From Chthoniobacter flavus Ellin428 (GTDB taxonomy: Bacteria; Verrucomicrobiota; Verrucomicrobiia; Chthoniobacterales; Chthoniobacteraceae): DNA of 64,000 bases. The translations under genes and the position numbers were made by a program. Below the pieces are notes generated by a model. The model was given only the letters and a program-made list of their open reading frames with translations, was not told the origin of the DNA and ran no database searches. Every line of letters starts with the position of its first letter. The first letter of the stretch is position 1. The stretch spans positions 1 through 64,000 of the forward strand of contig NZ_ABVL01000011.1 in the NCBI RefSeq assembly GCF_000173075.1, given 5' to 3'. Of the stretch, positions 56,116-62,319 are shown piece by piece.

Positions 56116-56134
56116 GACGGGCATGACCGTCGGC

Positions 56135-56214
56135 GGATAGGAGGAATAGGAGAAATAGGAAGAATAGGAATGGTGGGACTCCTATAACTCCTATTCTTCC
56201 TATTTCTCCTATCC
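56135..56214. repeat. Palindrome (GGATAGGAGAAATAGGAAG type)
   Basis: GGATAGGAGGAATAGGAGAA...ATAGGA (56135-56169) and TCCTATTCTTCCTATTTCTC...CC (56189-56214) are reverse complements apart from an extra AATAGGAG unit in the left arm. It lies between the VOC gene and the retron operon and could terminate the former. With repeat B copy 2 it brackets the retron cassette. Confidence 0.7.
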
Positions 56215-56329
56215 GTCGACAGCGAGAGACCGCTGCCACAGAATGAGCCACCTCAGGGCGCACGGGCGCTCAAATTCACAGCCATGCGCTTGACACTCCC
56301 GTACGGGTAGCGGCAGCCTGCCGAAGTCG

Positions 56330-58108
56330 ATGCCTTCCACCCCGGAGAACAGCCGCAGCTCCATGCTTCTGGTCGAGGATTGTTTCGCGTCGCAGGACGC
56401 GAGATTCCTCGAAGCCTTGCGCGGCGTCACCTCCGCGAAGTGGCTCGCCAGCTTTGCCGATCGCTGGAAGAAGGACCCACGTCCCTGGGCGAGACAGCAG
56501 ATCTTCGCTTATCTCGATCTCCCGCTGAGTTGCCCCGGGCACCAGCCCATCGTGAAGCGCCTCTTCAAGCAAGCCGAGGAAAACAAGGATACCGAGCTGA
56601 TGGGCGCCTTTCTCGCGGCGTTCGATACGCTCGTCCGCCGCGTCCGTCGCCAGAAATGGCATTGGGATCGCGCGACGCGTCAATCTTACACGACAGAGCG
56701 CCTCGCCACGCCACGCGATACCATCCCCCTCGATGGCCAGACGCGCACCGTCTCCACTTACGACTATCGCGCGCGCAAGATGATCACGCGACAGGAGCCC
56801 ATGCGCATGCCGCGCCACGGGCGTCTCTTCTCGCAACGCACGCGTTACTATCTGCACCGCCGGGTGTGGCGCTTTTTCCGCTGGCTCGGTTATCGACAGC
56901 CCGCGGACTATCCCGCGGCTATCGCGCCGGCGTTGAAGCATTATCGCGACGAAGACCTGGAGAAGGGGGAGCACATCCTCGATAGCTGGTCGCTGCTGAA
57001 CATCTGCTTCCGCGGTAGTGAGGCGCTGGCCTTCAAGCCCGATCACATCGGCCTCGCCGAGGGGCACTCGCTTGCTGAGTTAAAAGCCGCACCGCGTTTT
57101 GCCAAAGCCTGGGAAACGCCCGAAGCCGCGCGGGTGTTGCATGGAGTGATCATCGGCGCGCACTCGCAACTCGTGCGCATGTGGGCGATGGAGATGTTCC
57201 GGCGGGTTGGTAAATCGCTCGAGCTCACCCCAGTGGAATTGCTCGCCTTGCTCGATCATGAAGACGAGCGTGTGCAGCAATTCGGCGCGGAGCTTTTCGA
57301 AACGCAGAGTGGCCTGGAGAAGCTTTCCGTCACCACGTGGCTGGACCTGTTGCGCACGAAGAATCTGACCGCGCTCGCTACCCTGTGCGCCGCTTTCGAA
57401 AAGCACGTGACCGGGGAACGCCTCGCGCTCGCGCAGTGCATCGAGCTCACGTGCGCCAGGCCGGTACCGGTGGCGAAGCTCGGTTTCCGTTTCCTGCAAG
57501 CGCGCTCGATTTCTCCCGATGTGACTCCGGCTCTGGCCGCGTTGGCCTCCGCGCAATGCGCCGTGGTCGCCGGTGAAATCGCTACCTGGACGCTCGCTCG
57601 CCTCGGCACCGCGGAGGCTTACAACCTCAATGCGGTGAGCCGCTTTTTCGACAGCCTCCTGCCGGAAACCCGCGCGGCCGCGTGGACCTGGCTCGTGGCC
57701 GAAGGTTCGCTCGGCTACCGCGACTCCGCGCTGTGGAGCCGGCTCGCCGAGACACCTTTTGAAGATTTGCGGCTGAAGATGGTCGACGAACTCGAGCGCC
57801 GCGAGCGTCAACCCGATCCCGATCGCCTCGCGCAAGTCTGGTCCGCGGTGCTGCTCGGCGTGCATCGTGGCGGACGTCAGAAAGCCAAGGCCGTGCGACA
57901 GCTCGCGGAAGCGATTGCCGCCGAACCCGCGCGCTCGCCGGCGCTGCTGCCCGTGCTGGTGGTGGCCATCCGCAGCGTGCGCGGTCCGGAAATGCGCGTC
58001 GGTCTCGCGTCGGTCATGACCCTGCTTGCGCAACGCCCCGAGCTGATCGATGCAGTGCGGGCGAACTTGCCGGAATTGAAATTCACCACGGAGGCGGCGA
58101 CGGCATGA
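56330..58108 (+). CDS. ARM/HEAT-repeat protein of the retron cassette
   Basis: 592 residues, soluble, no signal peptide. The C-terminal two thirds are a string of short amphipathic helix pairs as in ARM/HEAT repeats: HSQLVRMWAMEMFRRVGKSL, LLALLDHEDERVQQFGAELF, GLEKLSVTTWLDLLRTKNLT, LAALASAQCAVVAGEIATWT, TRAAAWTWLVAEGSLGYRDS. The N-terminal ~200 residues are basic and less repetitive (WDRATRQSYTTERLATPRD; RTRYYLHRRVWRFFRWLG). Its ATGA stop/start overlaps the WH-SWIM gene by 4 bp. An ARM protein plus a WH-SWIM protein next to a retron RT is the composition described for type XIII retrons, where they are the putative effector partners; molecular activity is not known to me. Confidence 0.8.
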   Translation: MPSTPENSRSSMLLVEDCFASQDARFLEALRGVTSAKWLASFADRWKKDPRPWARQQIFAYLDLPLSCPGHQPIVKRLFKQAEENKDTELMGAFLAAFDTLVRRVRRQKWHWDRATRQSYTTERLATPRDTIPLDGQTRTVSTYDYRARKMITRQEPMRMPRHGRLFSQRTRYYLHRRVWRFFRWLGYRQPADYPAAIAPALKHYRDEDLEKGEHILDSWSLLNICFRGSEALAFKPDHIGLAEGHSLAELKAAPRFAKAWETPEAARVLHGVIIGAHSQLVRMWAMEMFRRVGKSLELTPVELLALLDHEDERVQQFGAELFETQSGLEKLSVTTWLDLLRTKNLTALATLCAAFEKHVTGERLALAQCIELTCARPVPVAKLGFRFLQARSISPDVTPALAALASAQCAVVAGEIATWTLARLGTAEAYNLNAVSRFFDSLLPETRAAAWTWLVAEGSLGYRDSALWSRLAETPFEDLRLKMVDELERRERQPDPDRLAQVWSAVLLGVHRGGRQKAKAVRQLAEAIAAEPARSPALLPVLVVAIRSVRGPEMRVGLASVMTLLAQRPELIDAVRANLPELKFTTEAATA

Positions 58109-59805
58109 ACCTTTCCTTTGCCTACCTCGGCCGCAGTGCGCTCACCGACGGCTCGCTCTCATTCTCTCCGAATCTCTCCCGCGAACCGGTGGCCTTTGAT
58201 GCCGCATTGCGTCACACCTTGCGCTTTCGTGAGGCCATCTCGGCGCTGCACGATGTCGTCATCAGCGACCACCGCTACAAGAAGCGCGACAAAAGCGCTT
58301 ACGAGGCGTGGAAAGCTTCCGAGGCCGCTCGCGTGCGCAATGTCCGCAGCGAAGCGTTGAAGCAGGCCAAGGCCGACGTTTACGCCAAAAGCCGGGTGCC
58401 GCTGCCGCCGGATTTCGAACGCCAGCACCATCGCCTCCTCAATCAATATTGGGATGCCCGCCGAAAATACGCCGACCATTTGCGCCAGACGGACATGGAG
58501 CTCTGGCGGCTGCTCATGCCGTGTGATCCCGTGGTGACGGTGGCCAACGACGTGGTCTTTTTCGAGTGCTTCAGCGCGGATGAATCGAGCTACGGCTGCC
58601 TGACCGTGAATCGCGACGATGGCTTCGGCCCGAGCGAGCAGCTCCAGCTCGGCACAACCAATGTCGATTACTCGTGGGATCTCTATCACGAGTTCCAGGC
58701 GCTGCGCTCCTATCGCGAAACGCGTTTCCGCGTGGACCCGCAAGGTTTCGACGTGGCCACGCACGGGCGCATGGAATATCGCGAGGAAAAGATCGATCTT
58801 CCCGATGGCTGGCTGCGCGGCTTCATGCAATTGCAAAGCGCGATGACGCTGCCGATGCGCCGCGTCACGCTGACCCGCGAAGCGCTTTACTCCGTGATGG
58901 TGTGGCTGAAGCGCCATCGCGCCCGCACCAGTCCACGCGCCTTGCGCTTCGAGCGTCACGGCGGAGGCCTCACGCTCGTCCTCGAGCCGTGGGAGACGCG
59001 CATCCCGGTTTACGGCGCCACGGCCGAAGCGGATTGGGCCGAGCCCGTGCGCATCTGGGGACGCCAGCGCTTGCTCGCGCTCGCGCGACTGTTGCCTATG
59101 ATCGAGAGCGTGGATGTCTACCTGCTCGGCACCGGCTTCCCGAGCTTCTGGGTGGCGCGCATGGGCGAGATGCGGCTCACCCTCGGCCTCAGCGGCTGGA
59201 CGGCGAACGATTGGACGCACGGCTCCGCGCTCGACATGCTCGCACCGCCCGCGCCGGCCAGCGCGGTGCAGATCGAGACCGTGGCGCAGCACATGCGCAC
59301 CGTTCGCGCGCAATCTTTCAACGACATCGTCCGCGCGGTGAATCATCCGCCTTCCTTCGTCGCTTCGGCGTTGAAGCATCTCGCCCATACCGGTCAGCTC
59401 ATCGCCGATCTCGACGCGGGCTTGTATCGCTGGCGGCAGATCATGCCGCGCGTCCTCGGCGAGGCCGAGCTCGGGCCGGAGAATCCGGAATTCGCCGCCA
59501 TGCACGATTTGCTCGTGCGCAAGCGCGCGATCGTCGAAAGCACCGTCGCCGCGCCGAGTGGCGGTTTTATTTTCACCGGCAAGGTCGAGTCCAAGCCGGT
59601 CGAGGTCCTCGTCGATACCGATGGCCGGATCAAGCGTGGACGCTGCCTATGCGGGCATCATCAACGCGCGGGCATTCGGATGGGTCCGTGCCGGCATTTG
59701 CTGGCCTTGCGCTGGCTCGCTTTGAATCAGACGCCCTCCACCGGTGGAAACGACGAATGGTTTGCCCGCCTCCGCGCGCAAGCTGGCGAGAAAGGAGGCG
59801 CGTGA
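58105..59805 (+). CDS. Winged-helix + SWIM zinc-finger protein of the retron cassette
   Basis: 566 residues. The C-terminal SWIM zinc finger is clear: RGRCLCG...GPCRHLLAL with C514-x-C516-x12-C529-x-H531. Before it, residues ~388-448 (ETVAQHMRTVRAQSFNDIVR; HPPSFVASALKHLAHTGQLI; DLDAGLYRWRQI) form a winged helix. The N-terminal ~380 residues have no family I can name but contain a helical region (YKKRDKSAYEAWKASEAARV) and a beta-rich middle. WH and SWIM domains bind nucleic acid, so a role in recognising or holding msDNA or target DNA is plausible. Coupled to the ARM gene by a 4-bp overlap; its stop is 14 bp before the predicted retron RNA. Confidence 0.85.
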   Translation: MNLSFAYLGRSALTDGSLSFSPNLSREPVAFDAALRHTLRFREAISALHDVVISDHRYKKRDKSAYEAWKASEAARVRNVRSEALKQAKADVYAKSRVPLPPDFERQHHRLLNQYWDARRKYADHLRQTDMELWRLLMPCDPVVTVANDVVFFECFSADESSYGCLTVNRDDGFGPSEQLQLGTTNVDYSWDLYHEFQALRSYRETRFRVDPQGFDVATHGRMEYREEKIDLPDGWLRGFMQLQSAMTLPMRRVTLTREALYSVMVWLKRHRARTSPRALRFERHGGGLTLVLEPWETRIPVYGATAEADWAEPVRIWGRQRLLALARLLPMIESVDVYLLGTGFPSFWVARMGEMRLTLGLSGWTANDWTHGSALDMLAPPAPASAVQIETVAQHMRTVRAQSFNDIVRAVNHPPSFVASALKHLAHTGQLIADLDAGLYRWRQIMPRVLGEAELGPENPEFAAMHDLLVRKRAIVESTVAAPSGGFIFTGKVESKPVEVLVDTDGRIKRGRCLCGHHQRAGIRMGPCRHLLALRWLALNQTPSTGGNDEWFARLRAQAGEKGGA

Positions 59806-59819
59806 GGTAAAGACGATTT

Positions 59820-60045
59820 GAGAGTGGCGGGCTGGTCTTCACTGAGACCACCATGCTGCGGCGTTCCGCCGCGGTTGCGTTTGCCCAGCCATGCTTCCCC
59901 AAGGCCGTTGTTCGTTTGGCACCGCCCGCTACCGTCGCGGGCGGCCAAGACAACCCAAGGGTTCCGCCCACGACGGTAGCGGGCGGTGCCTTGGTTAACG
60001 GTCTCGGTCCTGAGCGAGTAGTCAGTGAGACCACCCGCCACTCTC
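59820..60045 (+). ncRNA. Candidate retron msr-msd non-coding RNA
   Basis: 226 nt between the WH-SWIM stop and the reverse transcriptase, the usual place for msr-msd. The ends pair: GAGAGTGGCGGG...TGGTCT...CACTGA (59820-59845) with TCAGTGAGACCA...CCCGCCACTCTC (60022-60045), a 24-bp helix with bulges at C59832 and T59839, as expected for a1/a2. In the msr half: hairpins TGGTCT/AGACCA (59833-59838/59845-59850, competing with a1/a2) and GCGGCG/CGCCGC (59858-59863/59867-59872). In the msd half: 27-nt arms 59918-59944 and 59964-59990 with one mismatch and a 19-nt loop, flanked by CCGTT/AACGG. The branching G is not certain. It could instead be an unrelated palindromic repeat. Confidence 0.6.
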
Positions 60046-60069
60046 CTTCTTCTCCTCGACGCGAGTTTC

Positions 60070-61725
60070 ATGATTCCCCTTGGCGCCATTGCTGGAGCCC
60101 TCGTCGTGCTCTTGAGGCAGCTTTTCAAAGGCTCGAAGCCCCAACCCCGGCGATCGTCTCCGCCTCCTCCGGTACCGCGTCCGGGGGATCGGCCATACAC
60201 GCCCGGCGCGCCACCGCCGATCCCTCCGGCCGCTGGAGCCGCTCGGCCGGCCCAACCGTCGCCGCCGCGCTCGGCACCTCCGCGGAGCACAACGCTGAAT
60301 CTCGACGCCGGCCAGTTCACGCCGGTGAGCGCCGAAGAAGCGAAGAAACAGGCGCGCGGCATCAAGTGGAATTGGGCGAGTGTCAATTATGACCGGCGCG
60401 ACCAGATTCCCGCGCCCACCCAGCCGCGCACCTTGCTCATCGATCGCGCGATGGTCGCGCAAGGTCTGCTCACGCCCGAGCAACTCGTGGAGATTCATGA
60501 TGTGGGCGCGAAGATGGCCGAGCTGCGGCCCGATCTCGCCGGTATCGGCAATGTGGCCGACCACGCCGTTGCCGCGGACCAGGAGGAACGTCGCCGGCGC
60601 AAGGAACAGAAGATCGCCGAGTCCGCCGAACGCCAACGGAAGCACGCCGAGGCCGTCGCGCAGCGGCGCGCCACCGATATCATTTTCCTCGGCCGTGGCG
60701 TCTCCGGCGGCCTCGCGGATCGCCGGGCGAATGTCGAGAAGCTCCAGCAGCTTAACCTGCCGGTGCTGGCCACTTCCGGCGATGTCGCCAAAGTGCTCGA
60801 CCTCGAAATTTCGCGTCTGCGCTGGCTCGCCTTTCACAGCGAGGCGTGTGCCGTCACGCATTACGTGCGGTTCACCATTCCCAAGAAATCCGGCGGCACC
60901 CGCGAGCTCGCCGCGCCGCACCGCGAGATGGCGCGGTGCCAGCTCTGGATCAAGCTCAACATCCTGGATCGCATTCCGCTGCACGAGGCCGCCCATGGAT
61001 TCGTCGCCCATCGCGGCACGATGAGCAACGCCGTGCCACACGTCCGCCGCGATGTGGTGGTGAATGCCGATCTGAAGAACTTCTTCCCGACGATCACCTT
61101 CCCGCGGGTGAAGGGTATCTTTCAAGAACTCGGCTACTCGCCCGCCGTCGCCACCATCCTCGCGCTGCTCTGCACCGAGTGCCCGCGCCAGCGCGTGACT
61201 TACGCCGGCCGTGAGTTGCACGTCGCGACTGGCCCTCGCGCCTTGCCGCAGGGCGCCTGCACCAGTCCCGCGCTTTCCAATCTCGCCGCGCGTGGCCTCG
61301 ACGCCCGCCTCACCGGACTCGCCCGCAAGCTCGGCTGGGATTACACGCGCTACGCCGACGACCTGACCTTTTCCACCAGCGGCGCACCCGCGCAGAAAAC
61401 CGCCTGGATCCTCGCCCGCCTTCGCCACATCGCGCAGGAAGAAAACTTCACGGTCAACGAAACCAAGACGCGCGTGCAGCGTCCGAGCGCGCAGCAGACG
61501 GTCACCGGCATCGTCGTCAACAAACGCCCCAACGTTCCGCGCGAAACCGTGCGCCGCCTGCGGGCCATTCTGCACCGGGCGAAGACCGAAGGGCTCGCCG
61601 CGCAAAACCGCGAACAGCACCCGCACTTCGCCGCCTGGGTCGGCGGCATGATCGCCTATATGCAAATGGTGAATCCTGAACGCGGCAAAAAGCTGAAGGC
61701 GGAATTCGACGCACTGCCAAAGTAA
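60070..61725 (+). CDS. Retron-type reverse transcriptase with N-terminal extension
   Basis: 551 residues from ATG 60070; a GTG at 60025 is in frame but lies inside the a2 arm. RT motifs, numbered from that ATG: NAVPH 320-324 (retron NAxxH, region X), NADLKNFFP with catalytic D334, PQGACTSP 393-400, YADD 428-431 and VTG 478-480 (retron region Y). So it is a retron RT, not a group II intron or DGR enzyme. The first ~100 residues are unusual: a hydrophobic helix PLGAIAGALVVLLRQLF and a Pro-rich stretch (SSPPPPVPRPGDRPYTPGAP, PPIPPAAG), then a Glu/Arg/Lys-rich helical part (EERRRRKEQKIAESAERQRK). It makes msDNA from the adjacent RNA; the extension suggests membrane or partner docking (inference). 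Confidence 0.93.
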   Translation: MIPLGAIAGALVVLLRQLFKGSKPQPRRSSPPPPVPRPGDRPYTPGAPPPIPPAAGAARPAQPSPPRSAPPRSTTLNLDAGQFTPVSAEEAKKQARGIKWNWASVNYDRRDQIPAPTQPRTLLIDRAMVAQGLLTPEQLVEIHDVGAKMAELRPDLAGIGNVADHAVAADQEERRRRKEQKIAESAERQRKHAEAVAQRRATDIIFLGRGVSGGLADRRANVEKLQQLNLPVLATSGDVAKVLDLEISRLRWLAFHSEACAVTHYVRFTIPKKSGGTRELAAPHREMARCQLWIKLNILDRIPLHEAAHGFVAHRGTMSNAVPHVRRDVVVNADLKNFFPTITFPRVKGIFQELGYSPAVATILALLCTECPRQRVTYAGRELHVATGPRALPQGACTSPALSNLAARGLDARLTGLARKLGWDYTRYADDLTFSTSGAPAQKTAWILARLRHIAQEENFTVNETKTRVQRPSAQQTVTGIVVNKRPNVPRETVRRLRAILHRAKTEGLAAQNREQHPHFAAWVGGMIAYMQMVNPERGKKLKAEFDALPK

Positions 61726-61974: not shown

Positions 61975-62319
61975 ATGTCTATGTCTTCTCCAACCCAGCC
62001 CGCTTCGTTTCCCGACCCGCTACCCGATGAACTCAAGGCCATGCTTGAACTCAATCGCGACGCGCAAAGTGGCATTTGGGGTCAATACCTGTTCCTAAAT
62101 ATTGTCTTCTGGCTCGTCGCCGGATTCCTGGCGGCTGTGATCTTCCATTCCCACCTTTCGCCGGGATTGGTGAATGCGTTGTTTCCGTGTTTCCTACTGC
62201 AAAGCGCGTTAATTGGCCTGCAGGGTGCCGCGGAGCGTCGCGCCCAACGCCGTCTGCAATTGCTGCTCACCGTCATCCGCGGCATGCAGCATCGCAAGGA
62301 CGCGGCGTCGCTTTCCTGA
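61975..62319 (+). CDS. Small two-helix membrane protein, unknown
   Basis: 114 residues from ATG 61975 (ATG 61981 possible); a longer reading to 61756 begins inside repeat B. DPLPDELKAMLELNRDAQSG is followed by two hydrophobic segments (YLFLNIVFWLVAGFLAAVIF; LVNALFPCFLLQSALIGLQG) and a basic tail (RRAQRRLQLLLTVIRGMQHR). No family recognised. It is behind the retron cassette but separated from it by repeat B, so I do not count it as part of the system. Confidence 0.6.
   Translation: MSMSSPTQPASFPDPLPDELKAMLELNRDAQSGIWGQYLFLNIVFWLVAGFLAAVIFHSHLSPGLVNALFPCFLLQSALIGLQGAAERRAQRRLQLLLTVIRGMQHRKDAASLS

What the first reader, a model, noticed from the sequence alone, without database searches (positions are those of the whole stretch)
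60070..60400. Retron RT carries an N-terminal membrane-like helix and a Pro-rich region
Classic retron RTs are ~300-330 residues and start close to the RT fold. Here about 220-240 extra residues precede it: a hydrophobic helix near residues 3-20, a ~60-residue stretch very rich in Pro/Ser/Arg, and a charged helical region. This points to a tether (membrane or a partner), which would place msDNA surveillance at the envelope. Function is inference.
Basis: partly seen in the sequence, partly recalled or inferred. Interest (0 to 1): 0.65.

Follow-up and report, generated by a model that had tools for sequence, protein, structure and literature searches.

The report
Retron enzyme with a membrane tether
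A bacterial anti-phage reverse transcriptase carries a short greasy helix on a flexible proline-rich leash, and its relatives carry similar or different greasy ends at the start or the end of the protein, which suggests that this little-studied type of retron may work attached to the cell membrane.

Summary
Window 56330-61725 is a type XIII retron: HEAT-ARM gene, SWIM gene, a structured ncRNA with a1/a2 repeats (59820-60045), then the RT (60070-61725, 551 aa). The RT start codon lies 24 nt after a2, so the N-terminus is placed with fair confidence. Residues 1-20 form a hydrophobic helix, 22-75 hold 21 prolines, 136-202 are modelled as one long charged helix, and the RT core follows.

Relatives turn a single-protein oddity into a pattern. 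The query and 18 relatives share the N-terminal extension. In 17 of the 19 it starts with a short hydrophobic/amphipathic helix (consensus MGLFxxLxxxLFG, resembling MinD/MreB membrane-targeting helices); in 2 a similar helix sits internally. This group is one clade (support 100/99). Other type XIII RTs lack it; many instead end in a linker plus a transmembrane segment (9 of 65) or a Trp-rich tail (30 of 65); 22 have neither. No TM end and no WW tail occurred in 94 control RTs, though 6 of 94 pass the amphipathic cut-off.

Best reading: the retron ribonucleoprotein is tethered to the inner membrane. The tether is supported by comparison only; msDNA surveillance at the envelope is untested. New variant of a known kind.

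The parts
56330..58108 (+). HEAT-ARM partner gene of the type XIII retron, 592 aa
   Evidence: PADLOC HEAT-ARM_XIII E 2.7e-251 over residues 5-591; same gene order in relatives
58105..59805 (+). SWIM partner gene, 566 aa; overlaps the HEAT-ARM stop by 4 nt
   Evidence: PADLOC SWIM_XIII E 2.4e-171; SWIM homologue in 70 of 84 RT loci examined
59820..60045 (+). predicted retron ncRNA (msr-msd); a1 59820-59831, a2 60034-60045, long stem arms 59918-59944 / 59964-59990
   Evidence: perfect 12-nt a1/a2 and 27-nt stem; fold z -10.3; 83 consensus pairs, 23 with compensatory change, in an alignment of 4 loci; single full-length copy in the genome. Not in Rfam at gathering scores
60070..61725 (+). type XIII retron reverse transcriptase, 551 aa
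   Evidence: PADLOC RT_XIII E 1.1e-157; NAVPH 320-324, YADD 428-431, VTG 478-480
60070..60129 (+). N-terminal hydrophobic/amphipathic helix, residues 1-20 (putative membrane tether)
   Evidence: KD19 1.9; best amphipathic 11-mer GALVVLLRQLF, shuffle p 0.0095; modelled helix 5-19 at low pLDDT; equivalents in clade relatives
60133..60294 (+). Pro/Ser/Arg/Ala-rich linker, residues 22-75
   Evidence: 21 Pro of 54, net +7; modelled without secondary structure, pLDDT 43-64; variable in sequence in the clade
60295..60474 (+). conserved clade-specific N-domain, residues 76-135 (LNLDAGQFTP...RRDQIP...PRTLLIDRAMVAQGLLTPEQL)
   Evidence: R109, I113, P114, T121, D125, G132 invariant in 15 RTs
60475..60675 (+). 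long charged helix, residues 136-202
   Evidence: AlphaFold2 model, helix 136-202
60676..61722 (+). retron RT core, residues 203-551; no C-terminal extension
   Evidence: AlphaFold2 model and Foldseek hit to retron Ec86 RT 7v9x E 3.7e-24; tail length 0

Best explanation
This is the RT of a type XIII retron whose N-terminal helix (residues 1-20) docks on or in the cytoplasmic membrane and whose Pro-rich segment (22-75) is a flexible leash; the RT core, its ncRNA/msDNA and the SWIM and HEAT-ARM partners would hang from it on the cytoplasmic side. Shown by computation: the operon, the ncRNA, the start-codon position, the helix plus linker, and the recurrence of such helices across the clade. Inferred: that the helix binds lipid; that, as for MinD and MreB helices, single copies bind weakly and several are needed, so that assembly of the retron complex could control attachment; and that the location matters for phage sensing or for the effector step.
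For: (1) In 17 of 19 N-extension RTs a short hydrophobic/amphipathic helix opens the protein, consensus MGLFxxLxxxLFG, followed by a Pro/Ser/Thr/Ala-rich variable linker; in 2 (L052, L063) a similar helix is internal after an extra domain (starts chosen by eye). (2) With the blind rule 'first ATG of the open frame', 11 of 19 pass the amphipathic cut-off, 0 of 59 other type XIII-like RTs do, 6 of 94 control retron-like RTs do. (3) The group is one clade, 100/99; its sequence drifts freely while the hydrophobic character stays. (4) Outside it, 9 of 65 end in a TM segment and 30 of 65 in a Trp-containing tail; 0 of 94 controls have a TM at either end or WW in the last 16 residues. (5) The query's N-terminus has no basic residue before the hydrophobic run and R16, K20, K23, R27, R28 after it, which fits a cytoplasmic RT by the positive-inside rule (rule recalled). 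(6) Precedent: a 9-residue N-terminal helix mediates membrane binding of MreB, two copies fully localising GFP (PMC3163269, passages), a C-terminal one that of MinD (PMC6803595, passages), a 15-residue helix that of RNase E (PMC9848016, passages).
Against: No experiment. The hydrophobic core (residues 2-15) is short for a full membrane span, and the AlphaFold2 helix has low confidence. The shuffle test is at or below 0.05 in only 12 of 19, and fails clearly for L046, L053 and L063. The 19 RTs are related, so they are not independent trials. 22 of 65 RTs outside the clade, including cyanobacterial and Corallococcus ones, show neither a TM nor a Trp tail, so an anchor is not required by all type XIII retrons. 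Many Trp tails (e.g. KPWWDVV) are not evidently lipid-binding. 6 of 94 controls pass the amphipathic cut-off.
Confidence: 0.62

Rival explanations
1. The N-terminal helix is a docking motif for a partner protein (for example the HEAT-ARM repeat protein), joined by a flexible linker, and does not touch the membrane.
For: HEAT-ARM repeat proteins are common binders of short helices (recalled); the N-helix clade goes with a HEAT-ARM protein of about 600 aa, while the C-tail clade goes with a larger protein of about 1000-1080 aa beginning with a WGR-like sequence. Trp tails such as KPWWDVV look like peptide motifs.
Against: The helix sequence is not conserved beyond a hydrophobic pattern; a strongly hydrophobic segment replaces it in L041 and the query; TM segments occupy the other end in 9 RTs.
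Confidence: 0.22
2. The N-terminal region is a loosely constrained disordered extension with no specific function, or the true start is further downstream.
For: The linker is variable; RTs of the other clade begin at about query residue 75-80; an in-frame GTG exists near residue 86.
Against: 17 of 19 relatives keep a hydrophobic helix at the very start; the ATG follows directly on a2 of the ncRNA, 24-36 nt after it in the query, L037 and L038.
Confidence: 0.08
3. The Pro/Arg-rich leash is the functional part: a basic, disordered segment that binds RNA or drives condensates, the helix being secondary.
For: Residues 22-75 have net charge +7.
Against: Linker charge and composition vary in relatives, for example Glu/Lys-containing in L048 and Ala/Thr/Gln-rich in L043, while the helix persists.
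Confidence: 0.06
4. The hydrophobic N-terminus is a Sec-type export signal.
For: A hydrophobic run near the N-terminus.
Against: No basic n-region; basic residues follow the run; clade relatives have amphipathic MGLFxxLxxxLFG helices that do not look like signal peptides; RT and ncRNA would have to meet in the cytoplasm.
Confidence: 0.02

Closest known systems
Type XIII retron (RT + SWIM + HEAT-ARM/WGR; PADLOC RT_XIII, SWIM_XIII, HEAT-ARM_XIII)
   Same: All three protein models hit at very low E-values; ncRNA next to the RT
   Different: RT has an N-terminal helix plus Pro-rich leash and a conserved clade-specific N-domain that the PADLOC RT_XIII model does not cover (it aligns only from residue 152, model position 47); no C-terminal tail; HEAT-ARM of 592 aa, best matched by HEAT-ARM_XIII (WGR_XIII only 1e-20)
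Retron Ec86 (Eco1) RT and other solved retron RTs
   Same: RT core fold; 7v9x best Foldseek hit, E 3.7e-24, 29% identity; best PDB sequence matches are Ec86 chains
   Different: Ec86 RT chains are 314-349 aa in these listings, with no room for a comparable extension
Myxococcal retron RTs with extended N-termini (Mx162, Mx65, Sa163, Ne144)
   Same: Review PMC6868368 (passages) says that these RTs have N-terminal extensions of unknown function
   Different: Their sequences were not compared here; no membrane role is stated in the passages seen
MinD, MreB and RNase E membrane-targeting helices
   Same: Short amphipathic helix (PMC6803595, PMC3163269, PMC9848016, passages); clade consensus MGLFxxLxxxLFG resembles the MinD C-terminal helix as recalled
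   Different: Those are experimentally shown; here it is prediction, and the query's own helix is more hydrophobic than amphipathic

Membership tests
Retron | RT with NAXXH (region X) and VTG (region Y) motifs (PMC6868368, passages) | tested here: met
   NAVPH 320-324, YADD 428-431, VTG 478-480
Retron | ncRNA beside the RT with a1/a2 inverted repeats enclosing msr and msd | tested here: met
   predicted only
Retron | Production of branched msDNA with a 2',5' link | not testable with these tools
   Needs RT-DNA isolation
Retron type XIII | RT, SWIM and HEAT-ARM/WGR partner genes in one operon | tested here: met
   PADLOC RT_XIII, SWIM_XIII, HEAT-ARM_XIII
Retron type XIII | Anti-phage activity | not testable with these tools
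   No experiment; no paper found in the held library
Protein with a terminal membrane-targeting helix | Terminal helix with hydrophobic face and flexible linker, conserved in relatives | tested here: met
   17 of 19 by inspection, 11 of 19 by blind rule
Protein with a terminal membrane-targeting helix | Helix binds lipid and is sufficient to place a reporter at the membrane | not testable with these tools
   Bench test needed
Single-pass transmembrane protein | Hydrophobic segment long enough to span the membrane | tested here: inconclusive
   KD19 1.9 for the best 19-residue stretch but a core of only 14 uncharged residues, 2-15

The most novel reading that the evidence does not exclude
Type XIII retrons are membrane-associated immune complexes: different lineages have gained tethers at opposite ends of the RT (N-terminal amphipathic helix; C-terminal TM segment or Trp tail), so that the msDNA-bearing complex patrols or acts at the inner membrane, where phage DNA enters, with weak single helices making attachment depend on assembly of the complex.
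Probability: 0.4. Interest if true: 0.8.

Novelty: new variant of a known kind. Interest (0 to 1): 0.6.

Why it matters
In the retron passages seen here (PMC6868368) N- and C-terminal RT extensions are 'of unknown function', and no paper on type XIII was found in the held library. A tether at one or other end of the RT would give those extensions a simple testable role, would place a reverse transcriptase and its msDNA at the membrane, and would separate type XIII from retrons with compact RTs such as Ec86. It also gives a ready handle (delete 20 residues) to ask where a retron senses phage.

Tried and rejected
Rfam: no match at gathering scores near the ncRNA; the 14 listed matches are microRNA-like and sRNA hits far below cut-off on hairpins. 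The ncRNA hairpin as a dispersed genomic repeat: rejected, since the full 246-nt stretch occurs once and the other four matches are its own reverse stem or fragments of 27-37 nt. The 2-TM ORF downstream (61978-62319) as a fourth, membrane component: rejected, since among the ORFs of the 84 loci searched only the window's own copy and one E 0.049 hit appear. Membrane segments in the SWIM or HEAT partners as a substitute anchor: a few SWIM ORFs pass KD19 1.6 (L038, L045, L051, L074, L091, L109) and one HEAT ORF (L064), in most cases apparently inside the folded protein (the L074 segment is at the very start of the open frame, before a start codon was chosen), so no clear substitute. Viral contigs: 80 loci, best 38% identity, none examined for SWIM; used as controls only. 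Convergence: six control RTs of the window's own phylum (L017, L018, L019, L023, L024, L027) also seem to begin with a GLLxxLFG-like helix, noted but not followed far. A combined p-value over the 19 RTs was computed but is not used, because the rows are related. In one search the starts were chosen by eye at the helix, which favours the reading; one search repeats it with a blind rule and is the fairer figure. Rows left out of trees: L047, L054, L063, L082, L083, L100, L113, and 17 further near-copies or long branches. One search left out L047, L054, L082, L083, L100, L113 of 84.

Full report
What is there. The window holds a complete type XIII retron at 56330-61725. PADLOC models name the three genes: HEAT-ARM_XIII (56330-58108, E 2.7e-251), SWIM_XIII (58105-59805, E 2.4e-171) and RT_XIII (60070-61725, E 1.1e-157). 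Pfam sees only RVT_1 in the RT. The RT has the retron motifs NAXXH (NAVPH, 320-324), YADD (428-431) and VTG (478-480) (motif definitions from passages of PMC6868368). Between SWIM and RT lies a stretch with perfect 12-nt a1/a2 repeats (59820-59831 and 60034-60045) and a 27-nt stem, folding far better than shuffles (z -10.3). Three relatives (L037, L038, L039) have a similar structure; in the alignment of the 4 sequences, 23 of 83 predicted pairs show compensatory change. It occurs once at full length in the genome. No Rfam family matches at gathering score.

The start codon. The ATG at 60070 is 24 nt after a2; in L037 and L038 the distance is 27 and 36 nt. The longer in-frame start (GTG 60025) lies before the end of a2.

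The extension. The best 19-residue stretch at the N-terminus averages 1.9 on the Kyte-Doolittle scale; residues 22-75 contain 21 Pro of 54 with net charge +7, against at most 6 Pro in any 54-residue window of the HEAT or SWIM proteins or the rest of the RT. AlphaFold2 with a 29-row alignment gives mean pLDDT 86.8, a helix at 5-19 (pLDDT about 53-68), mostly no structure at 20-87, short helices to 130, one long helix 136-202, then the RT core. The core matches Ec86 RT best (7v9x, Foldseek E 3.7e-24; profile search E about 2e-69). No solved chain matches the SWIM protein.

Relatives. One genome-contig scan gave 80 loci, L037-L116; with the query, L010, L011 and L031 that makes 84 RTs, of which 70 have a SWIM homologue in the DNA held; several of the rest are cut by contig ends. 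The sample is the 80 loci most like the query, not all type XIII retrons.

The N-extension clade. Nineteen RTs (query, L037-L046, L048-L053, L055, L063) carry a long N-terminal extension and no C-terminal one. In 17 the protein starts with a short hydrophobic or amphipathic helix: for example MGLFSALFGWL (L037), MGLLSLIARLF (L038), MGLFGDIFRTLFG (L039), MFDWLEKLFGG (L040), MGFFSRLIERLFG (L042), MKWLLRLLASLFG (L055), and the very hydrophobic MRTVFYLFLLFWIGRFIW (L041); the alignment consensus of 15 of them is MGLFxxLxxxLFG. In L052 and L063 a similar helix is internal, after an extra domain. The linker that follows varies in length and sequence. A conserved block (query 76-147) is shared by the clade. 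With starts chosen by eye, the best amphipathic 11-mer beats composition shuffles at p 0.05 or better in 12 of 19, and clearly does not in L046, L053 and L063. With a blind rule (first ATG of the open frame) 11 of 19 pass a fixed cut-off, against 0 of 59 other type XIII-like RTs (6 of the 84 left out) and 6 of 94 control retron-like RTs. The blind rule misses L037 and the three Polyangium RTs because of an upstream ATG and a GTG start. Only the query passes the KD19 1.6 cut-off for a TM segment in this clade (1 of 19). The tree puts the N-extension RTs in one clade: 18 rows, SH-aLRT 99; 16 rows, bootstrap/SH-aLRT 100/99 in a careful tree of 65 rows.

The other RTs. Of the remaining 65, 9 end in a TM segment after a long linker (Methylobacterium, Enterovirga, Variovorax, Pseudoduganella, Phytobacter, Vibrio, Enterovibrio), 30 end in a Trp-containing tail such as KKPWWKFW, KPWWDVV or LLGKIRRWFGGK, 4 have other tails and 22 have a short or no tail. 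Among 94 controls none has a TM at either end or WW in the last 16 residues. The C-TM RTs need 3 changes on the tree and the Trp tails 5, so ends have been gained, lost or exchanged repeatedly. RTs with neither exist (cyanobacteria, Corallococcus, a small clade L057-L060/L064/L075), so a tether is not universal.

How it most likely works. Shown by computation: operon, ncRNA, start, helix and leash, recurrence. Inferred: the helix binds the inner leaflet of the cytoplasmic membrane (or spans it, N-terminus out, by the positive-inside rule, recalled), and the Pro-rich leash gives the RT-ncRNA-msDNA complex and its partners reach. MinD and MreB helices bind weakly and act in multiple copies (PMC6803595 and PMC3163269, passages), and RNase E shows that an RNA enzyme can be held on the membrane by a 15-residue helix (PMC9848016, passages). 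By analogy, attachment of the retron could depend on assembly. Whether sensing or the effector step needs the membrane is unknown. The main rival is a docking helix for the HEAT-ARM protein, whose size and domain content change together with the position of the RT's end element.

Known or new. Type XIII and RT extensions as such are known; PMC6868368 (passages) lists N- and C-terminal extensions of retron RTs as being of unknown function. PMC12548924 (passages) says retrons fall into 13 types and its main text holds neither 'membrane' nor 'XIII'. Searches of the held library for retron with type XIII, XIII and msDNA, or WGR found no paper, and retron with transmembrane or amphipathic/inner membrane gave no listed paper that by its title or abstract start concerns a membrane-bound retron RT (listings only, 25 of 866 and 15 of 75). 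The 2020 classification paper is not held, so its remarks on type XIII could not be checked.

Noticed in passing
window 56116-56240: A strong hairpin built of TAGGA-rich units just upstream of the HEAT-ARM gene is a dispersed repeat: 76 matches in the own genome on both strands. It gives spurious microRNA hits in Rfam.
   Followed up: partly
L017, L018, L019, L023, L024, L027 (N-termini): Retron-like RTs of other groups in the window's phylum also seem to begin with a MinD-like helix, e.g. MGLLNWLFGKK and GILHKIQDFFFNIFSGKRK; L023 and L027 score best with PADLOC RT_X, L017 and L019 with RT_XIII at lower scores. Terminal membrane helices may be more widespread in retron RTs.
   Followed up: partly
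G000 contig C35 17147-17173 (locus L201) and window 59988-60014: A 27-nt stretch of the retron ncRNA recurs exactly near a second RT hit of the same genome (C35:15678-16310); a shorter piece of the msd stem recurs on C61. Unexplained.
   Followed up: no
L045, L051, L052, L063 RT N-termini: Some relatives have an extra domain of about 80 residues in the N-terminal extension (winged-helix-like by eye), before or after the hydrophobic helix.
   Followed up: no
L061 and L089 RT C-termini: Two cyanobacterial RTs end in a shared domain of about 65 residues (ILECYKQGSKLKVRVIS...) instead of a tail.
   Followed up: no
L067, L071, L086, L091 and others, gene upstream of SWIM: In the C-tail clade and the cyanobacterial RTs the partner is a protein of about 1000-1080 aa with a WGR-like N-terminus (YEVDL...VNFRYGRRG), replaced in the window's clade by a 592-aa HEAT-ARM protein without it.
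   Followed up: partly
L047: The RT of this contig is fused in frame to what looks like a beta-lactamase-family N-terminus, probably a rearrangement or assembly artefact.
   Followed up: no
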